A DNA stretch of 64,000 nt from Orlajensenia leifsoniae. GTDB lineage: Bacteria > Actinomycetota > Actinomycetes > Actinomycetales > Microbacteriaceae. Positions 7,545 to 13,909 of this stretch are shown here, one piece after another. Position 1 is the stretch's first letter. Each line of letters starts with the position of its first letter. A program made the translations under genes and the position numbers. The stretch lies in contig NZ_SPQZ01000002.1 in assembly GCF_004570845.1 (NCBI RefSeq), forward strand, positions 682,001 to 746,000, in the 5' to 3' direction. Below the pieces are notes generated by a model. That model saw only the letters and a program-made list of their open reading frames with translations. It searched no databases and was not told the DNA's origin.

Positions 7545-8216
7545 TCAGCCCTTGAGCGACCAGGCCTTGCGCCGGATGAGCACGTGGCCCCGCTTGGTGG
7601 TCAGGCGCGTCCACGGCCCCGTCTCGAAGACGTTCACCGGATCGTCGGCGTGCAGGAAGCCCAGGCTGAGCGCTGCGAAGGCGGCACCGGCCGGAACGTG
7701 CTCGAGGCCGTCGATCGGGCGCCCCCAGACCTCGGCGCGGGCTCGGGTCACGAGCTGCTCACCGGTGCCCGTCGGCACGGCGTCGGCGATCTCGGCGATG
7801 CCGGCGTGGGCGGCGAGTTCGAGGTGGACGGCATCCGTCGACCCCTGAGGGTGCCAGCCACCGCGCGGCGGCGAGATGCCCGCCCACGTGACACTGCCGA
7901 CCTCGTGCGGCACGCCGATCTCCGCCGGGCCATCGCCGCCAGCACTCTCGACGCGCGCCAAGCGGTCCAGCAGCGACCGGCTCGGAACGACGGCGTCGAA
8001 GGAGCCCGTGTCGGCCAGGGCGAAGGTGCGCAGGCCGAGCACCGTCGGCGTCTCGTCGAGGAGGCCGCGCGGGTAGAGGATCGCCGTGTAGACGGCGAGC
8101 ACGCCGGAGCCTGCGATCAGGCGCACGGAGCCGTCCTCCACGCGAGAGGCTCGGGACAGGTAGGTGGTGAGGTCGCCGACGCTCGGGCGGTCGGTGAGAA
8201 GGAATGACTGGCTCAT
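7545..8216 (-). CDS. Conserved hypothetical protein, 223 aa
   Basis: I do not recognise a characterised family. The 223-residue protein has no signal peptide or membrane segment and has a balanced soluble composition. It contains a central GSVTWAGISPPRGGWHP segment and a C-terminal WTRLTTKRGHVLIRRKAW. Codon use (GC third positions) matches its neighbours, which supports a real gene. It is convergent with the FAD dehydrogenase (59-base gap) and divergent from the thioesterase gene (82-base gap). ATG at 8216 is preceded by GAGGG and a TAGTTT box that may be its -10 element. Confidence 0.75.
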   Translation of the reverse strand: MSQSFLLTDRPSVGDLTTYLSRASRVEDGSVRLIAGSGVLAVYTAILYPRGLLDETPTVLGLRTFALADTGSFDAVVPSRSLLDRLARVESAGGDGPAEIGVPHEVGSVTWAGISPPRGGWHPQGSTDAVHLELAAHAGIAEIADAVPTGTGEQLVTRARAEVWGRPIDGLEHVPAGAAFAALSLGFLHADDPVNVFETGPWTRLTTKRGHVLIRRKAWSLKG

Positions 8217-8298
8217 CTGCCCTCTAAACTACCGGAGGGACGGGCCCCGACTCGCATCGGTGAGCCCCCACTCCGCGCGACACGAACACGAGGTGCAC

Positions 8299-9171
8299 AT
8301 GACGAACCCCATCGACGGCCTGCTCGACGTGCTCGATCTGGTCGACACCGGGGCACGCACCAGCGAGGACATCTTCACCGGCCCGAGCCAGTGGATGCCG
8401 CACGGCCGCGTCTTCGGCGGCCAGGTGCTCGCACAGTCCGTCGTGGCGGCCAGCCGAACCGTGCCCGACGACCGCGCCGTGCACTCGATGCACGGCTACT
8501 TCCTGCGGCCGGGCGACGTCAACCTGCCGATCACCTTCTCGGTCGATCGCATCCACGATGGCCGATCGTTTGCGACTCGACGAACGCAGGCCTACCAGAA
8601 CGGGGTGCCGATCCTCTCGATGATCGCGTCGTTCCAGGACCCTGATGACGGCGTCGACCACCAGATCGAGATGCCCGGCGACATCCCCGCCCCCGAGTCC
8701 CTGCCGACGACGGCCGAGCTCATCGGGCACATCGATCACGACGTGGCCCGCTACTGGTCCACCGAGCGCGCCTTCGACGTGCGCCACGTCGAGTCGCCCA
8801 TCTTCCTGTCCGTCGAGGGCGAGCGCGTGGCCCACCAGGCGGTGTGGATGAAAGCCGCCGGTCCCCTGCCCGACGACGACAGGCTGCACCGGGCCGCGCT
8901 CGCCTACGCGACCGACTACTCGATCCTCGAATCGCCGATGCGTCGACACGGGGTTCCGTGGGCCATGCGCGGACTCAGGGTGGCGAGCCTCGATCACGCG
9001 ATGTGGTGGCACCGCTCGGGTCGCGTCGACGAATGGCTGCTCTACGTGCAGGACTCCCCCAGCGCATCGGGTGGCCGTGGCCTCGCGCGCGGAAGCATCT
9101 TCAGCGCCGACGGCGTGCTGCTCGCCAGCGTCGCCCAGGAGGGCATGATCCGCGTTCCCGACGCCCGCTGA
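8299..9171 (+). CDS. tesB: Acyl-CoA thioesterase II (TesB family)
   Basis: A 290-residue double-hotdog acyl-CoA thioesterase that hydrolyses acyl-CoA to free acid and CoA. TesB hallmarks are visible: the N-terminal hotdog with RVFGGQVLAQSVVAA and HSMHGYFLRPGD, the RSFATRRTQAYQNG strand, and the C-terminal hotdog with ATDYSILESP, LDHAMWWH and the GRGLARGSIFSADG end. The ATG at 8299 has GAGGTG just upstream; the longer frame upstream runs into the divergent promoter and is not used. Its role is probably fatty-acid turnover, but natural substrates cannot be told from sequence. Confidence 0.95.
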   Translation: MTNPIDGLLDVLDLVDTGARTSEDIFTGPSQWMPHGRVFGGQVLAQSVVAASRTVPDDRAVHSMHGYFLRPGDVNLPITFSVDRIHDGRSFATRRTQAYQNGVPILSMIASFQDPDDGVDHQIEMPGDIPAPESLPTTAELIGHIDHDVARYWSTERAFDVRHVESPIFLSVEGERVAHQAVWMKAAGPLPDDDRLHRAALAYATDYSILESPMRRHGVPWAMRGLRVASLDHAMWWHRSGRVDEWLLYVQDSPSASGGRGLARGSIFSADGVLLASVAQEGMIRVPDAR

Positions 9172-9211: not shown

Positions 9212-9958
9212 TCAGCGGTCGAGCTCGGCCTGCAGCAGCACGTCGTCGGAGTCCAGGGCGCGGATGTCGACCATGGTGATGCGGTCGATGGGCACATCGG
9301 TCGAGCCGTCGGCGCGCACATCGGTGCCCGGGGCGGCACTCCAGCTCGAGACCAGGCGGGAGTCTCCTGCGTCGTCGGTCACGTAGAGGCCGTAGCGGTC
9401 GGATGCCGCAGGAGCGCCGTCGGTGCGGCCACCGTCGCTGCCGCTGTCGCCGTATCGGTCGTTCCCGGCGCCGCTGCCGCCGTCCTTGTAGCGGCAGTGC
9501 GTCGAGAGGGCGGTTCCCCACGCCTCCCCCACCACCCTGACGTCGGCGCTCAGGGCGGTCTGGCCGGTGCTGTCGAGGTGCAGCGTCTCGGCCTGCGCCG
9601 CCGGAGGATTCTCGACCCCGCCGATCGAGAGCACCAGGGCGACGGTCACGGCCGCCACTCCGAGCGCTGCTGCCGCGACGATGCGGCCCCGGCGCCGGCG
9701 TCGGCGACGAGGACGCGGCTCAGGCCCGGGCACCGGCTCAGCCGCCTGCTGCACAGGCTGGTCGGCTGCCGCATCCGGGATCTCCACGATCGACACCCGT
9801 GACAGCAGCCCGGGCATGCCGGAGACCTCGGCGACAGCAGCGCTGCAGCGCGGACAGGTCGAGAGGTGGTCCTCGTAGTCGAGACGCTCGCGCGAACTCA
9901 GGGCCCCCAGCACGTAGGCGGCATCCCAGTCCGAGTAGGCGTCGATGGTCGCGCTCAT
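9212..9958 (-). CDS. Anti-sigma factor (RskA-like) with zinc-binding ASD domain
   Basis: A 248-residue membrane anti-sigma factor. The N-terminal cytoplasmic domain (residues 1-55) contains the H-x3-C-x2-C motif in HLSTCPRCS used to hold ECF sigma factors. An Arg-rich stretch precedes one membrane helix (about residues 97-117, RIVAAAALGVAAVTVALVL), and the rest forms an RskA-type extracytoplasmic domain. The ATG overlaps the stop of the sigma gene by 4 bases, so the pair is translationally coupled. It should keep the sigma factor inactive until regulated proteolysis or a conformational change at the membrane. The 40 bases to the convergent thioesterase gene hold nothing recognisable. Confidence 0.92.
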   Translation of the reverse strand: MSATIDAYSDWDAAYVLGALSSRERLDYEDHLSTCPRCSAAVAEVSGMPGLLSRVSIVEIPDAAADQPVQQAAEPVPGPEPRPRRRRRRRGRIVAAAALGVAAVTVALVLSIGGVENPPAAQAETLHLDSTGQTALSADVRVVGEAWGTALSTHCRYKDGGSGAGNDRYGDSGSDGGRTDGAPAASDRYGLYVTDDAGDSRLVSSWSAAPGTDVRADGSTDVPIDRITMVDIRALDSDDVLLQAELDR

Positions 9959-10464
9959 CGTCCGGTCACCCCGCGTTCCTGCAGGGCGAGGCGCAGAGCG
10001 CGCAGGGCGTAGTGCAGCCGCGACTTGACGGTTCCGCTGGGTACGCCGAGCTCGTCGGCCGCCTCGGTTACCGATCGTCCTCCGTAGTAGACCGTCACGA
10101 GCACGGCACGGTGGTCGTGACTCAGCTCGCCGAGGGCATCGGCGATGAGCCAGCGATCGAGGGCGGCATCCGTCGAGTCGGCCTCCACCACCTCGGGAAC
10201 ATCGTGCACGGCGAACTCCTGCTGCGCTCGAGCGCTCCTCCTGTCGTCGATCACGAGATTGCGGGTCACCGTGAACAGCCAGGCACGTGCCGAGCCCTCG
10301 GACTGGTCGAGGATCTCCGGCCGCCGCCAGGCTCTCAGCATGACCTCCTGGACGATGTCGTCGGCCAGCGCCCTGTCACCGGTCAGTCTCACGACGTAGC
10401 GCCAGAGCGCCGGCGCGTGCTCGTCCTGGATGACGCGCAGAGCCTCGGCCCGGTCATCGCTCAC
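9955..10464 (-). CDS. ECF-type RNA polymerase sigma factor
   Basis: A 169-residue extracytoplasmic-function sigma factor. Region 2 is seen in LWRYVVRLTGDRALADDIVQEVMLRAW and FTVTRNLVID; region 4 in LSHDHRAVLVTVYYGGRSVTEAADELGVPSGTVKSRLHYALRALR. The GTG start at 10464 is supported by GGAGG about 10 bases upstream. It is co-transcribed with the anti-sigma gene (4-base overlap). Upstream, on the same strand, is TGAACC-N17-GTGTTA at 10482-10510. The same signature points the other way toward the Rieske gene, so autoregulation is likely. It resembles the SigK/RskA arrangement, but I do not assign an exact ECF group. Confidence 0.94.
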   Translation of the reverse strand: MSDDRAEALRVIQDEHAPALWRYVVRLTGDRALADDIVQEVMLRAWRRPEILDQSEGSARAWLFTVTRNLVIDDRRSARAQQEFAVHDVPEVVEADSTDAALDRWLIADALGELSHDHRAVLVTVYYGGRSVTEAADELGVPSGTVKSRLHYALRALRLALQERGVTGR

Positions 10465-10481
10465 GAGAGCACCTCCATCGT

Positions 10482-10510
10482 TAACACGAATGGCGCCTGC
10501 CTTCGGTTCA
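10482..10510 (-). promoter_or_regulatory. ECF-type promoter of the sigma/anti-sigma operon
   Basis: Read on the minus strand, TGAACC (10510-10505), a 17-base spacer and GTGTTA (10487-10482) lie 17 bases before the GTG start at 10464. The layout fits the GAACC / CGTnT pattern of ECF promoters and is matched by the promoter facing the Rieske gene. Confidence 0.7.
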
Positions 10511-10533
10511 GTCGTACTCCCGCAAAGCCCGGT

Positions 10534-10562
10534 TGAACCTTTCCCGAGGCTGCGCCGTGTTC
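10534..10562 (+). promoter_or_regulatory. ECF-type promoter of the Rieske/DUF2231 pair
   Basis: TGAACC (10534-10539), a 17-base spacer and GTGTTC (10557-10562) face the Rieske gene, leaving a leader of about 75 bases. The -35 is identical to that of the divergent sigma operon and the -10 differs only in its last base, with a C directly before it in both. This suggests one sigma factor drives both. Confidence 0.68.
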
Positions 10563-10642
10563 CCTGTAGAACCGTCTTCCCTCCAGAACTGCAAAGCTAC
10601 TCCGGCTTCATCCAGCGTCAATCGAGAGGATCGCCCAGCATC

Positions 10643-11134
10643 ATGACCGAGCAGAGGATCATCACCCGCCGAGCAGCACTCGTCATCAGCGGAGCCGGCG
10701 CGAGCGCCATCGCCCTAGCCGCGTGCACCCCGGGCACCGACACGGGCACAGCGCCTGCCGACTCCGCGACGACGGATGCCGCCTCCCAGGCACCATCGGC
10801 CTCATCATCCGCCGCCCCCGATGCCGGAGCCGCATCCGGAACCGAGGTCGCGAAGCTCGCCGACATCCCCGTCGGAGGGTCGATCGACGCGAAGCTCGGC
10901 GCCGACCCGATCGTGCTGGCGCAGCCGACCGCCGGTGAGGTGGTGGGCTTCAGTGCCATCTGCACCCACCAGCAGTGCGTCGTCGCCGCAGCTGCAACGG
11001 AGTTCGACTGCCCCTGTCATCAGTCCCGCTTCGACGCCGCCACCGGGGAGCCGTTCCCCGGGAGCAAGGCGCTCACGGGCCTCGCGAAGCTCACGATCAC
11101 CGTCGACGGCGACACCGTGCTCGCGTCGGCGTGA
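10643..11134 (+). CDS. Rieske [2Fe-2S] protein, Tat-exported lipoprotein
   Basis: A 163-residue exported iron-sulfur protein. The N-terminus has a twin-arginine start (ITRRAALVISGAG) and a lipobox (LAAC, Cys at residue 31), followed by an Ala/Ser/Pro-rich linker to about residue 68. The Rieske domain carries both cluster motifs, C-x-H in CTHQQC and C-x2-H in CPCHQSRF, and ends with the usual GKALTGLAKLTITVDGD-like strands. It should sit on the outer face of the membrane and take part in electron transfer; the partner is unknown. ATG at 10643 was chosen because the signal peptide starts there, with GAGAGGA upstream. It is followed by a DUF2231 gene after 15 bases. Confidence 0.93.
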   Translation: MTEQRIITRRAALVISGAGASAIALAACTPGTDTGTAPADSATTDAASQAPSASSSAAPDAGAASGTEVAKLADIPVGGSIDAKLGADPIVLAQPTAGEVVGFSAICTHQQCVVAAAATEFDCPCHQSRFDAATGEPFPGSKALTGLAKLTITVDGDTVLASA

Positions 11135-11149
11135 GCAGCGGCATCCGAC

Positions 11150-11659
11150 ATGGACTACTCGTTCAACGGACTCCCCGTGCACATCCTCATCGTGCACGCC
11201 GTCGTCATCGTGGTGCCCGTCGCCGCGATCGTGGTGCTGCTGGCGACGGTGTGGCCACGGGCGAGGCGCTGGTTCGGACTCGTCACACCGATCCTCGGGG
11301 TGATCGCCGCGGCATTCGTCTACGTGGCGAAGGAGGCGGGCGAATGGCTGAAGGACCGCCTGCCCGACTCGCCGCTCATCCAGGAGCACGCCGATCTCGG
11401 CGACACTCTGCTGCCGTGGGCCATCGCGCTGGCCGTCCTGTCCATCGTCGTCTACGGCTGGTATCGCGTGGTCGACAAGCGAGCCGCTGACGAGGCCCCG
11501 TCAGCGTTGGTCCGACGCATCGTCGCGATCATCCTGGCCGTCGCGGCCGTCGTCGTCGTGCCTGCAGGCATCATCACGACCGTGATCATCGGCGAGTCCG
11601 GCTCCCGCGCGGTGTGGGAGGGTTCGTTCAGCGACACTCCGCTCGATCCCGCCCCGTGA
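11150..11659 (+). CDS. DUF2231-like four-helix membrane protein
   Basis: A 169-residue integral membrane protein with four hydrophobic segments (about residues 12-35, 45-60, 86-104 and 123-148). It has the FNGLPVHILIVHAVVIVVP opening typical of DUF2231 proteins, including two early histidines (residues 11 and 16) and another in EHADLGD. Paired histidines in helical bundles often bind haem, but that is inference. It lies 15 bases after the Rieske gene in the same direction, so the pair probably forms one exported/membrane redox unit under the adjacent ECF sigma factor. Confidence 0.8.
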   Translation: MDYSFNGLPVHILIVHAVVIVVPVAAIVVLLATVWPRARRWFGLVTPILGVIAAAFVYVAKEAGEWLKDRLPDSPLIQEHADLGDTLLPWAIALAVLSIVVYGWYRVVDKRAADEAPSALVRRIVAIILAVAAVVVVPAGIITTVIIGESGSRAVWEGSFSDTPLDPAP

Positions 11660-11712: not shown

Positions 11713-12210
11713 CTATGAGCGCGACGGCGCCCGCTTCGTGAAGGCGACGGGCTCGTCGAGATACGGAGTCCAGGACGCCCGTTCATGGTCGTTGATGCGA
11801 CGTGGGCGACCGGATGCGGCATCCACCAGCACGATCGTCGTCGCCGCCCGGGCGTAGAGCACCGCGGGCGCGACGCCGACGGGCGACCACACTTCGTAGC
11901 AGACCTCGAGGCTCGCTCCACCCATCCGCCCGATCCAGAGCTGAACGTCGAGTGGCAGCCGCTGGTAGGGCACCTGCGCGAGGTACTCGACCTCCTGGCG
12001 GGCGATGATCGTGAGGGTTGCGGCACCCGGACGACCGTCGAGCACGGCGGTCGAGGCGCCGACGGCCGTGTCGCCGTGGACGGCCTCGTCCGTCTCCCAG
12101 AACGCCTGGATGCGCGCCTCCTCGAGAAGGCGCAGCATCGAGGCGTTGTTGACGTGGGCGTAGGCGTCGAGGTCGCTCCAGCGCAGCCGGATCGGTACGT
12201 TGAGCCTCAC
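11713..12210 (-). CDS. Acyl-CoA thioesterase, 4-hydroxybenzoyl-CoA thioesterase (hotdog) family
   Basis: A 165-residue single hotdog-fold protein. The signature LRWSDLDAYAHVNNASMLRLLEEARI at residues 8-33 contains the catalytic Asp in the D-x-x-x-H-V-N-N pattern of 4HBT enzymes; QEVEYLAQVPY and a substrate-strand region follow. It should hydrolyse small or aromatic acyl-CoA thioesters; the substrate is unknown. I chose the GTG at 12210 because it begins the conserved region and sits 16 bases after the ettA stop; longer frames run back through ettA. It is probably co-transcribed with ettA. The 53 bases to the convergent DUF2231 gene are unremarkable. Confidence 0.88.
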   Translation of the reverse strand: MRLNVPIRLRWSDLDAYAHVNNASMLRLLEEARIQAFWETDEAVHGDTAVGASTAVLDGRPGAATLTIIARQEVEYLAQVPYQRLPLDVQLWIGRMGGASLEVCYEVWSPVGVAPAVLYARAATTIVLVDAASGRPRRINDHERASWTPYLDEPVAFTKRAPSRS

Positions 12211-12226
12211 GAGTCGAGCCGACCGC

Positions 12227-13909
<1,683 letters not shown>

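What the first reader, a model, noticed from the sequence alone, without database searches (positions are those of the whole stretch)
10482..10562. Mirror-image ECF promoters driving a sigma/anti-sigma pair and a Rieske/DUF2231 module
The 178-base gap carries TGAACC-N17-GTGTT on both strands, at 10482-10510 and 10534-10562. The hexamer is identical and both spacers are 17 bases. This strongly suggests that the ECF sigma factor activates itself and the neighbouring exported Rieske protein, making the Rieske/DUF2231 pair its regulon core.
Basis: partly seen in the sequence, partly recalled or inferred. Interest (0 to 1): 0.56.

Follow-up and report, generated by a model that had tools for sequence, protein, structure and literature searches.

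The report
Paired SigL-type promoters, Rieske redox module
In this actinobacterium two back-to-back promoters of the same kind appear to switch on a stress regulator and, in the opposite direction, an exported iron-sulfur protein with a membrane partner; related bacteria keep the promoters but often carry a different exported or membrane protein behind them.

Summary
The sigma factor is a SigL-type ECF (NCBIfam PRK09645 above cut-off; best solved relative M. tuberculosis SigL). Its partner matches RslA.

In 31 loci with a divergent Rieske or DUF2231-like gene, TGAAC-N16-18-CGT stands before sigL in 31 of 31 and before the divergent gene in 30 of 31 (permuted-motif means 0.01-0.15). The -35/-10 spacing is fixed, while the gap between the promoters varies from 2 to 58 bases, once 364: two promoters, not one operator. 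Other relatives have the site before other genes: YceI 11 of 11, Lipoprotein_15 8 of 8, FMN-binding lipoprotein 2 of 2, DoxX 5 of 6. A test on genes away from sigL was weak for Rieske and negative for DUF2231.

Best reading: a SigL/RslA-type switch that autoregulates and drives an exported redox module. The redox signal and the module's job are inferred; no transcription was measured.

The parts
10483..10510 (-). SigL-type promoter of the sigma/anti-sigma operon: -35 TGAACC (10510-10505), spacer 16, -10 region CGTGTT (10488-10483)
   Evidence: TGAAC-N16-18-CGT before sigL in 31 of 31 divergent loci
10534..10561 (+). SigL-type promoter of the Rieske gene: -35 TGAACC (10534-10539), spacer 16, -10 region CGTGTT (10556-10561)
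   Evidence: TGAAC-N16-18-CGT before the divergent gene in 30 of 31 loci
9955..10464 (-). SigL-type ECF sigma factor, 169 aa, GTG start
   Evidence: NCBIfam NF007227 (PRK09645) 239.3 bits, cut-off 202; M. tuberculosis SigL 6dv9 E 8.5e-53
9212..9958 (-). RslA-like zinc-finger anti-sigma factor, 248 aa, HxxxCxxC motif, one hydrophobic segment (by eye); its frame overlaps the end of sigL
   Evidence: Pfam zf-HC2 7.1e-06; RslA 3hug_B E 1.5e-13
10643..11134 (+). Exported Rieske [2Fe-2S] protein, 163 aa, twin-arginine signal with a lipobox cysteine
   Evidence: Pfam Rieske 6.5e-10; RR, Cys28 and the CxH/CxxH ligands invariant in the 17 sequences aligned
11150..11659 (+). DUF2231-like membrane protein, 169 aa, helical model, three invariant histidines (H11, H16, H80)
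   Evidence: 17 of 19 aligned members match Pfam DUF2231 at E <= 0.001, best 1.4e-9, though this member does not; invariant residues; model mean pLDDT 88.4

Best explanation
The intergenic region carries two back-to-back promoters for one SigL-type ECF sigma factor. When the RslA-like anti-sigma factor lets it go, the sigma factor transcribes its own operon (sigma plus anti-sigma, giving positive feedback and built-in shut-off) and, in the other direction, an operon for a lipid-anchored Rieske protein and a DUF2231-like membrane protein. Shown by sequence and comparison: the two promoter-like elements, the identity of the sigma and anti-sigma factors, the export signals, and conservation of the layout. 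Inferred: that RNA polymerase with this sigma factor uses both; that oxidation (zinc loss at HxxxCxxC) is the signal, as reported for M. tuberculosis RslA; that Rieske and DUF2231 form one electron path across the membrane, DUF2231 carrying a histidine-bound cofactor or quinone; and that the module restores the redox state of the envelope. In the wider family the sigma factor appears to serve a slot into which different exported or membrane proteins, several of them redox proteins, have been exchanged.
For: Sites real and not chance. Sigma is SigL-type, anti-sigma RslA-like; HxxxCxxC present in 102 of 103 related anti-sigmas. Paired sites: 31 of 31 and 30 of 31; permuted controls, means 0.01-0.15, maximum 2. 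Spacing TGAAC-N17-CGT in 31 of 31 sigL promoters and 28 of 31 opposite ones, while the distance between the two varies. Over 103 SigL loci, 78 have the site within 200 bases of sigL, 16 more before a YceI or DoxX gene that leads into sigL, 9 neither. Other partner genes: 26 of 27 with the site, control mean 0.225, maximum 5. Weak support: Rieske genes not divergent from sigL have a TGAACC site in 4 of 7 genomes with SigL at E <= 1e-30 and in 1 of 13 without (Fisher p 0.03). A close Rieske in a genome without SigL (G010, L128) lacks the site. CG-TG agrees with the strongest positions of the measured M. tuberculosis SigL -10 consensus (passages of PMC6372665).
Against: No expression data. The Rieske test away from sigL is fragile: with the TGAAC pattern used elsewhere, 500 bases upstream, it is 4 of 7 against 3 of 13 (adding G040 and G043; p 0.17), and moving the borderline genome G039 to the SigL side makes it 4 of 8 against 1 of 12 (p 0.11). 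The same test on best DUF2231 hits gives 0 of 6 with SigL (G013, G027, G038, G048, G056, G057) and 1 of 4 without (G039), though a second copy in G038 has a site. The residues that set -12/-11 specificity in M. tuberculosis SigL (His54, Asp60) align with Arg48 and Gln54 here; the -9 and -7 preferences are met at neither site, -8 only at the sigma promoter. One divergent locus (L043) lacks the opposite site and 9 of 103 SigL loci show none. The loci are related to each other and were chosen by similarity to the window's sigma, so counts are not independent. No solved fold matched the DUF2231-like model at E <= 0.001.
Confidence: 0.86

Rival explanations
1. The facing TGAACC/GGTTCA boxes are the two halves of an inverted-repeat operator for a transcription factor, not two promoters.
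For: Both hexamers are identical and face apart symmetrically.
Against: The distance between the boxes varies from 2 to 58 bases (one 364), while each box keeps a nearly exact distance to its own CGT. Sites also occur singly: of the 72 loci without a divergent Rieske or DUF2231 gene, 47 have a sigL-strand site and 11 an opposite one within 300 bases (control means 0.4 each).
Confidence: 0.03
2. Only the sigL promoter is used by this sigma factor; the Rieske promoter is read by another ECF sigma factor with a similar -35 preference, or mainly by the housekeeping sigma factor.
For: The genome holds three other relatives of this sigma factor at E <= 1e-8. G035 has a site before its Rieske gene without a SigL at E <= 1e-30. 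DUF2231 genes away from sigL lack the site in 6 of 6 SigL-bearing genomes, best hits.
Against: The site before the divergent gene is present in 30 of 31 loci, and in 26 of 27 further partner genes of other families. Both sites share all 12 fixed bases here and in two same-genus genomes.
Confidence: 0.08
3. The promoters are real, but the Rieske/DUF2231 pair is not a redox relief module; it is an accessory path of respiration or a cofactor-assembly helper that merely shares the regulator. (This concerns the module's job and can hold together with the promoter part of the best explanation.)
For: Among solved structures the Rieske profile is most like bc1/b6f and related Rieske domains. No fold match was found for the DUF2231-like model.
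Against: NCBIfam bc1/b6f models score far below their cut-offs (36.3 against 275; 34.6 against 154). The slot beside sigL can instead hold an FMN_bind-like lipoprotein with ApbE, which points to exported electron carriers in general.
Confidence: 0.3

Closest known systems
SigL/RslA of Mycobacterium tuberculosis
   Same: Sigma and anti-sigma homologous; a SigL-dependent promoter before sigL, with a -10 consensus beginning T-G and a preference for C-G just before it (passages of PMC6372665); HxxxCxxC zinc motif that is redox-sensitive in RslA (passages of PMC2877774).
   Different: SigL-dependent promoters named there are P-sigL, P-pks10 and P-Rv1139c. A passage on M. avium subsp. paratuberculosis lists mpt53 and a cytochrome c biogenesis gene among operons that it appears to link to SigL; the linking sentence was only partly shown. 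Neither passage shows a divergent Rieske/DUF2231 pair. His54 and Asp60 are not conserved here. The TGAACC -35 consensus of SigL is recalled; the two primary papers were not held and a text search for SigL with TGAACC found none.
Flavinylated extracytosolic electron-transfer clusters (FMN_bind, ApbE, NQR/RNF-like)
   Same: In L044 and L058 the slot opposite sigL holds an FMN_bind-like lipoprotein followed by ApbE and an oxidoreductase-like membrane gene; NQR/RNF-like clusters are reported primarily from Actinobacteria and candidate phyla (passage of PMC8238504).
   Different: The window has Rieske and DUF2231 instead; the word 'sigma' is not found in that paper's main text.
Rieske subunits of bc1 and b6f complexes
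   Same: Rieske domain and ligand motif.
   Different: Short Tat-type lipoprotein; below the NCBIfam cut-offs of the bc1 and b6f models it matches.

Membership tests
SigL-type ECF sigma factor (NCBIfam PRK09645) | Score above the curated cut-off | tested here: met
   239.3 bits against 202
SigL-type ECF sigma factor (NCBIfam PRK09645) | Closest solved relative is SigL, over nearly the full length | tested here: met
   6dv9 E 8.5e-53, residues 6-167; second is 3hug_A (E 6.4e-23), the SigL fragment crystallised with RslA; the next match is RpoE 2q1z at 1.9e-15
SigL-type ECF sigma factor (NCBIfam PRK09645) | Cognate RslA-like zinc anti-sigma factor in the same operon | tested here: met
   3hug_B E 1.5e-13 with HxxxCxxC aligned
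SigL-type ECF sigma factor (NCBIfam PRK09645) | Promoter-reading residues as in M. tuberculosis SigL (His54, Asp60); a property of that protein rather than a defining mark of the family | tested here: inconclusive
   Arg48 and Gln54 align there, an Asp lies one residue before the Gln; the effect on specificity cannot be told from sequence
SigL-type ECF sigma factor (NCBIfam PRK09645) | Recognition of these two promoters by this sigma factor | not testable with these tools
   needs transcription assays
DUF2231 (PF09990) | Match to the Pfam model | tested here: inconclusive
   window protein: no match at E <= 10; 17 of 19 aligned members match at E <= 0.001, best 1.4e-9
Rieske domain (PF00355) | Pfam match above cut-off and CxH/CxxH ligands | tested here: met
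   39.2 bits against 20.3; ligands invariant in the 17 sequences aligned
bc1 or b6f Rieske subunit | Score above an NCBIfam equivalog, subfamily or exception cut-off | tested here: not met
   36.3 against 275; 34.6 against 154; 32.3 against 250; 22.2 against 97.4
Tat-exported lipoprotein | Twin arginine followed by hydrophobic stretch and lipobox cysteine | tested here: met
   R9, R10 and C28 invariant in the 17 sequences aligned; export and lipid attachment themselves not testable

The most novel reading that the evidence does not exclude
Across Actinobacteria, SigL-type sigma factors are dedicated controllers of the outward-facing electron budget of the cell envelope: a conserved promoter, often a back-to-back pair, forms a socket beside sigL into which unrelated exported or membrane modules (Rieske/DUF2231, FMN_bind/ApbE, Lipoprotein_15, YceI, DoxX) have been plugged repeatedly, which would make Lipoprotein_15 and DUF2231, families that Pfam describes without a function, parts of such electron paths.
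Probability: 0.38. Interest if true: 0.68.

Novelty: new variant of a known kind. Interest (0 to 1): 0.5.

Why it matters
What the SigL system is for is, as far as I know, unsettled. A promoter that can be recognised by eye, kept beside sigL in several actinobacterial families while the gene behind it changes, gives a direct list of candidate targets outside the mycobacteria. It also ties DUF2231 and Lipoprotein_15, which Pfam describes as a predicted membrane protein and a secreted repeat of unknown function, to one regulator and so makes their role testable.

Tried and rejected
Inverted-repeat operator: rejected because the gap between boxes varies while each promoter's inner spacing is fixed. 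Chance: rejected. A larger regulon in this genome: of the 12 hits of TGAACCN15-17CGTNT, the pair precedes its genes properly; L008 is intergenic but points at the end of a gene; L015 (spacer 15) lies 132 bases before a ROK-like regulator (named by eye) but inside a frame called on the other strand; the other 8 lie in called frames (the caller is a simple one of my own, and it also extends the Rieske frame over the promoters). The loose pattern TGAAC-N17-CGTG gives 105 hits against 4 for the reversed control; these were not classified, and codon usage probably explains most. The loose three-genome scan was too noisy to use. Genes away from sigL: weak for Rieske, negative for DUF2231. Fold search with the DUF2231-like model gave nothing at E <= 0.001. 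Heme ligation by H11/H16/H80 was considered, but coordinates were not measured. In NCBIfam the DUF2231-like set matched no model above a cut-off; one member had a weak transporter hit. Paper searches for a link between ECF or SigL-type sigma factors and Rieske, DUF2231, DoxX or YceI, for Rieske or DUF2231 with flavinylation and for DUF2231 with heme or Rieske listed nothing on point among the rows shown; papers outside the held library were not searched.

Full report
What is there. The window shows a sigma gene (GTG 10464 to 9955, minus strand), an anti-sigma gene overlapping its end (9958 to 9212), and on the plus strand a Rieske gene (ATG 10643 to 11134) and a small membrane protein (11150 to 11659). 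The 178-base gap holds TGAACC-N16-CGTGTT on both strands, 10510 to 10483 and 10534 to 10561. In the 3.78 Mb genome the pattern occurs five times: this pair, one intergenic site that faces away from an ammonium-transporter-like gene, and two inside open frames taken as coding.

Who reads it. The sigma factor scores 239.3 bits on NCBIfam PRK09645 (cut-off 202), and its best solved relative is M. tuberculosis SigL (6dv9, E 8.5e-53). The anti-sigma factor matches Pfam zf-HC2 and RslA (3hug_B, E 1.5e-13), with HxxxCxxC in register. Passages of PMC6372665 give the SigL -10 consensus as T-12 G-11 N C/A-9 A-8 G-7, with a reported preference for CG just upstream and the strongest specificity at G-11. 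Both sites here read CG-TG. With that numbering the predicted starts are about 10474 (minus) and 10570 (plus). The -9 and -7 preferences are met at neither site, -8 only at the sigma promoter. Residues His54 and Asp60, which set specificity in that protein, align with Arg48 and Gln54 here. The -35 consensus TGAACC for M. tuberculosis SigL is recalled; the primary papers were not held. In the fetched set, however, both Mycobacteroides sigL genes carry TGAACC-N16-CGTGTA upstream (L118, L120).

The comparative test. By profile, 21 have a Rieske gene and 10 a DUF2231-like gene as the nearest divergent match. TGAAC-N16-18-CGT stands before sigL in 31 of 31 of these and before the divergent gene in 30 of 31; the miss is Cryobacterium sp. 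Y82 (L043). Two hundred permuted motifs gave means of 0.01 to 0.15 loci per class and strand, at most 2. The 31 include the window's own locus and two of its genus, and the set is related, so the counts are not independent. The inner spacing is fixed (N17 in 31 of 31 sigL promoters and 28 of 31 opposite ones; of the other three, L116 has N18, the site of L034 lies beyond the scanned 300 bases, and L043 has none), while the two promoters stand 2 to 58 bases apart, once 364. Spacer columns are mostly variable, with a few partly conserved. This is what two promoters look like, and not what one operator looks like.

Beyond adjacency. Best Rieske hits not divergent from sigL carry a TGAACC site in 4 of 7 genomes with SigL at E <= 1e-30 (G038, G048, G051, G056 with; G042, G047, G050 without) and in 1 of 13 genomes without it (G035) (Fisher p 0.03). 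G056 is linked to sigL within two kilobases and G050 lies just upstream of it; leaving both out gives 3 of 5 against 1 of 13 (p 0.04). The test is fragile. With the looser TGAAC pattern G040 (385 bases upstream) and G043 also match, and it becomes 4 of 7 against 3 of 13 (p 0.17); with G039, whose best SigL relative scores 4.2e-30, moved to the SigL side it is 4 of 8 against 1 of 12 (p 0.11). SigL-bearing genomes also tend to hold the closer Rieske proteins. Best DUF2231 hits not divergent from sigL give no support: 0 of 6 with SigL, 1 of 4 without (G039), although a second copy in G038 has a site. The cleanest single case is G010: a close Rieske protein, no SigL (best relative 4.8e-15), no site. 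So co-regulation is well supported where the genes are divergent from sigL, and not shown elsewhere.

The slot and its contents. Of the other 72 loci, 47 have the site on the sigL strand and 11 on the opposite strand within 300 bases (control means 0.4 each, maxima 9 and 6). Eight loci have a Lipoprotein_15 gene on the opposite strand and two an FMN-binding lipoprotein followed by ApbE; eleven have a YceI gene and six a DoxX gene leading into sigL in the same direction. Pfam was run on ten representatives only (FMN_bind scored 21.7 bits against a cut-off of 22); the other members rest on phmmer matches to them. Of these 27 genes 26 carry the site (YceI 11 of 11, Lipoprotein_15 8 of 8, FMN-binding 2 of 2, DoxX 5 of 6; permuted control mean 0.225, maximum 5). 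In three loci (L025, L030, L066) YceI leads into sigL and Lipoprotein_15 runs the other way, both with a site: the mirror pair has moved one gene out. In all, 94 of 103 SigL loci have the site at the sigL operon, 78 directly and 16 through a partner gene; 9 do not. On a quick tree of the sigma proteins the partner label needs at least 22 changes, counting loci without a partner as a class (13 without them), against 53.6 for shuffled labels. The label is thus clustered by lineage and has changed many times; 34 of 99 inner branches are open, so the number is rough.

The module. In the 17 Rieske sequences aligned (of 24 loci with a match) the twin arginine, the lipobox cysteine and the ligands are invariant; the window's Rieske is below the cut-offs of the NCBIfam bc1 and b6f models that it matches. 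The membrane protein is not recognised by Pfam DUF2231 on its own, but 17 of the 19 members aligned (of 23 loci with a match) are at E <= 0.001. It has three invariant histidines and an all-helical model (mean pLDDT 88.4) without an informative solved relative. Two neighbouring genes in one direction behind one promoter suggest that they work together; that they pass electrons across the membrane is inference.

How it works, by strength. Shown by sequence: two SigL-type promoter elements in mirror arrangement; a SigL/RslA-type regulator pair; an exported Rieske protein and a membrane partner behind the second promoter. Supported by comparison: co-regulation of the regulator and the divergent module, and exchange of modules behind a constant promoter. 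Inferred from passages on the M. tuberculosis system (PMC2877774): oxidation of the anti-sigma CXXC releases zinc and weakens sigma binding. PMC10449499 (abstract and passages) links SigL to low iron and zinc and to cleavage of RslA by the Rip1 protease, so the signal here could be metal or proteolysis instead.

What is known. An autoregulated SigL promoter and redox-sensitive RslA are known from the passages above. I found no paper tying a SigL-type or other ECF sigma factor to a Rieske/DUF2231 pair or to the interchangeable slot; a main ECF classification paper was not held, so a prior description there cannot be excluded. I therefore call this a new variant of a known kind.

Noticed in passing
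window 10430-11134 (+): The Rieske frame stays open upstream through the promoter region to an ATG at 10430, so an automatic gene call can wrongly start the Rieske gene inside the sigma gene, as my own simple caller did; aligned homologues support the start at 10643.
   Followed up: yes
window 10464-10488 (-): The sigL promoter lies at a nearly constant distance from the start codon (site start 44 to 48 bases upstream in 24 of the 30 loci listed), which predicts a very short mRNA leader of about 10-12 bases with the ribosome-binding site at its very start.
   Followed up: partly
L107, L111, L115 (Arthrobacter): A SigL-type site precedes a divergent small proline/alanine-rich lipoprotein-like gene, not searched against any family library.
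   Followed up: no
L037 (888-1436, -): A SigL-type site faces a divergent 183-residue membrane-like protein with only a sub-threshold match to DUF7475.
   Followed up: no
L035: The anti-sigma relative lacks HxxxCxxC (the only one of 103), no site is found within 200 bases of sigL, and an NQR2/RnfD-like oxidoreductase gene lies upstream.
   Followed up: no
L053 (Kribbella pittospori): The DoxX match beside sigL is weak (E 2e-08) and has no site, unlike five other Kribbella loci; possibly a broken copy.
   Followed up: no
L158 (G039) and L135 (G035): SigL-type sites precede a DUF2231 and a Rieske gene in genomes with no SigL at E <= 1e-30; G039 has a borderline relative at 4.2e-30.
   Followed up: partly
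window 8164-9171 (+) and 11713-12240 (-): Acyl-CoA thioesterase and 4HBT thioesterase-like genes flank the module on both sides; a similar sequence, judged by eye, stands downstream of the sigL operon in L044 and L058.
   Followed up: no
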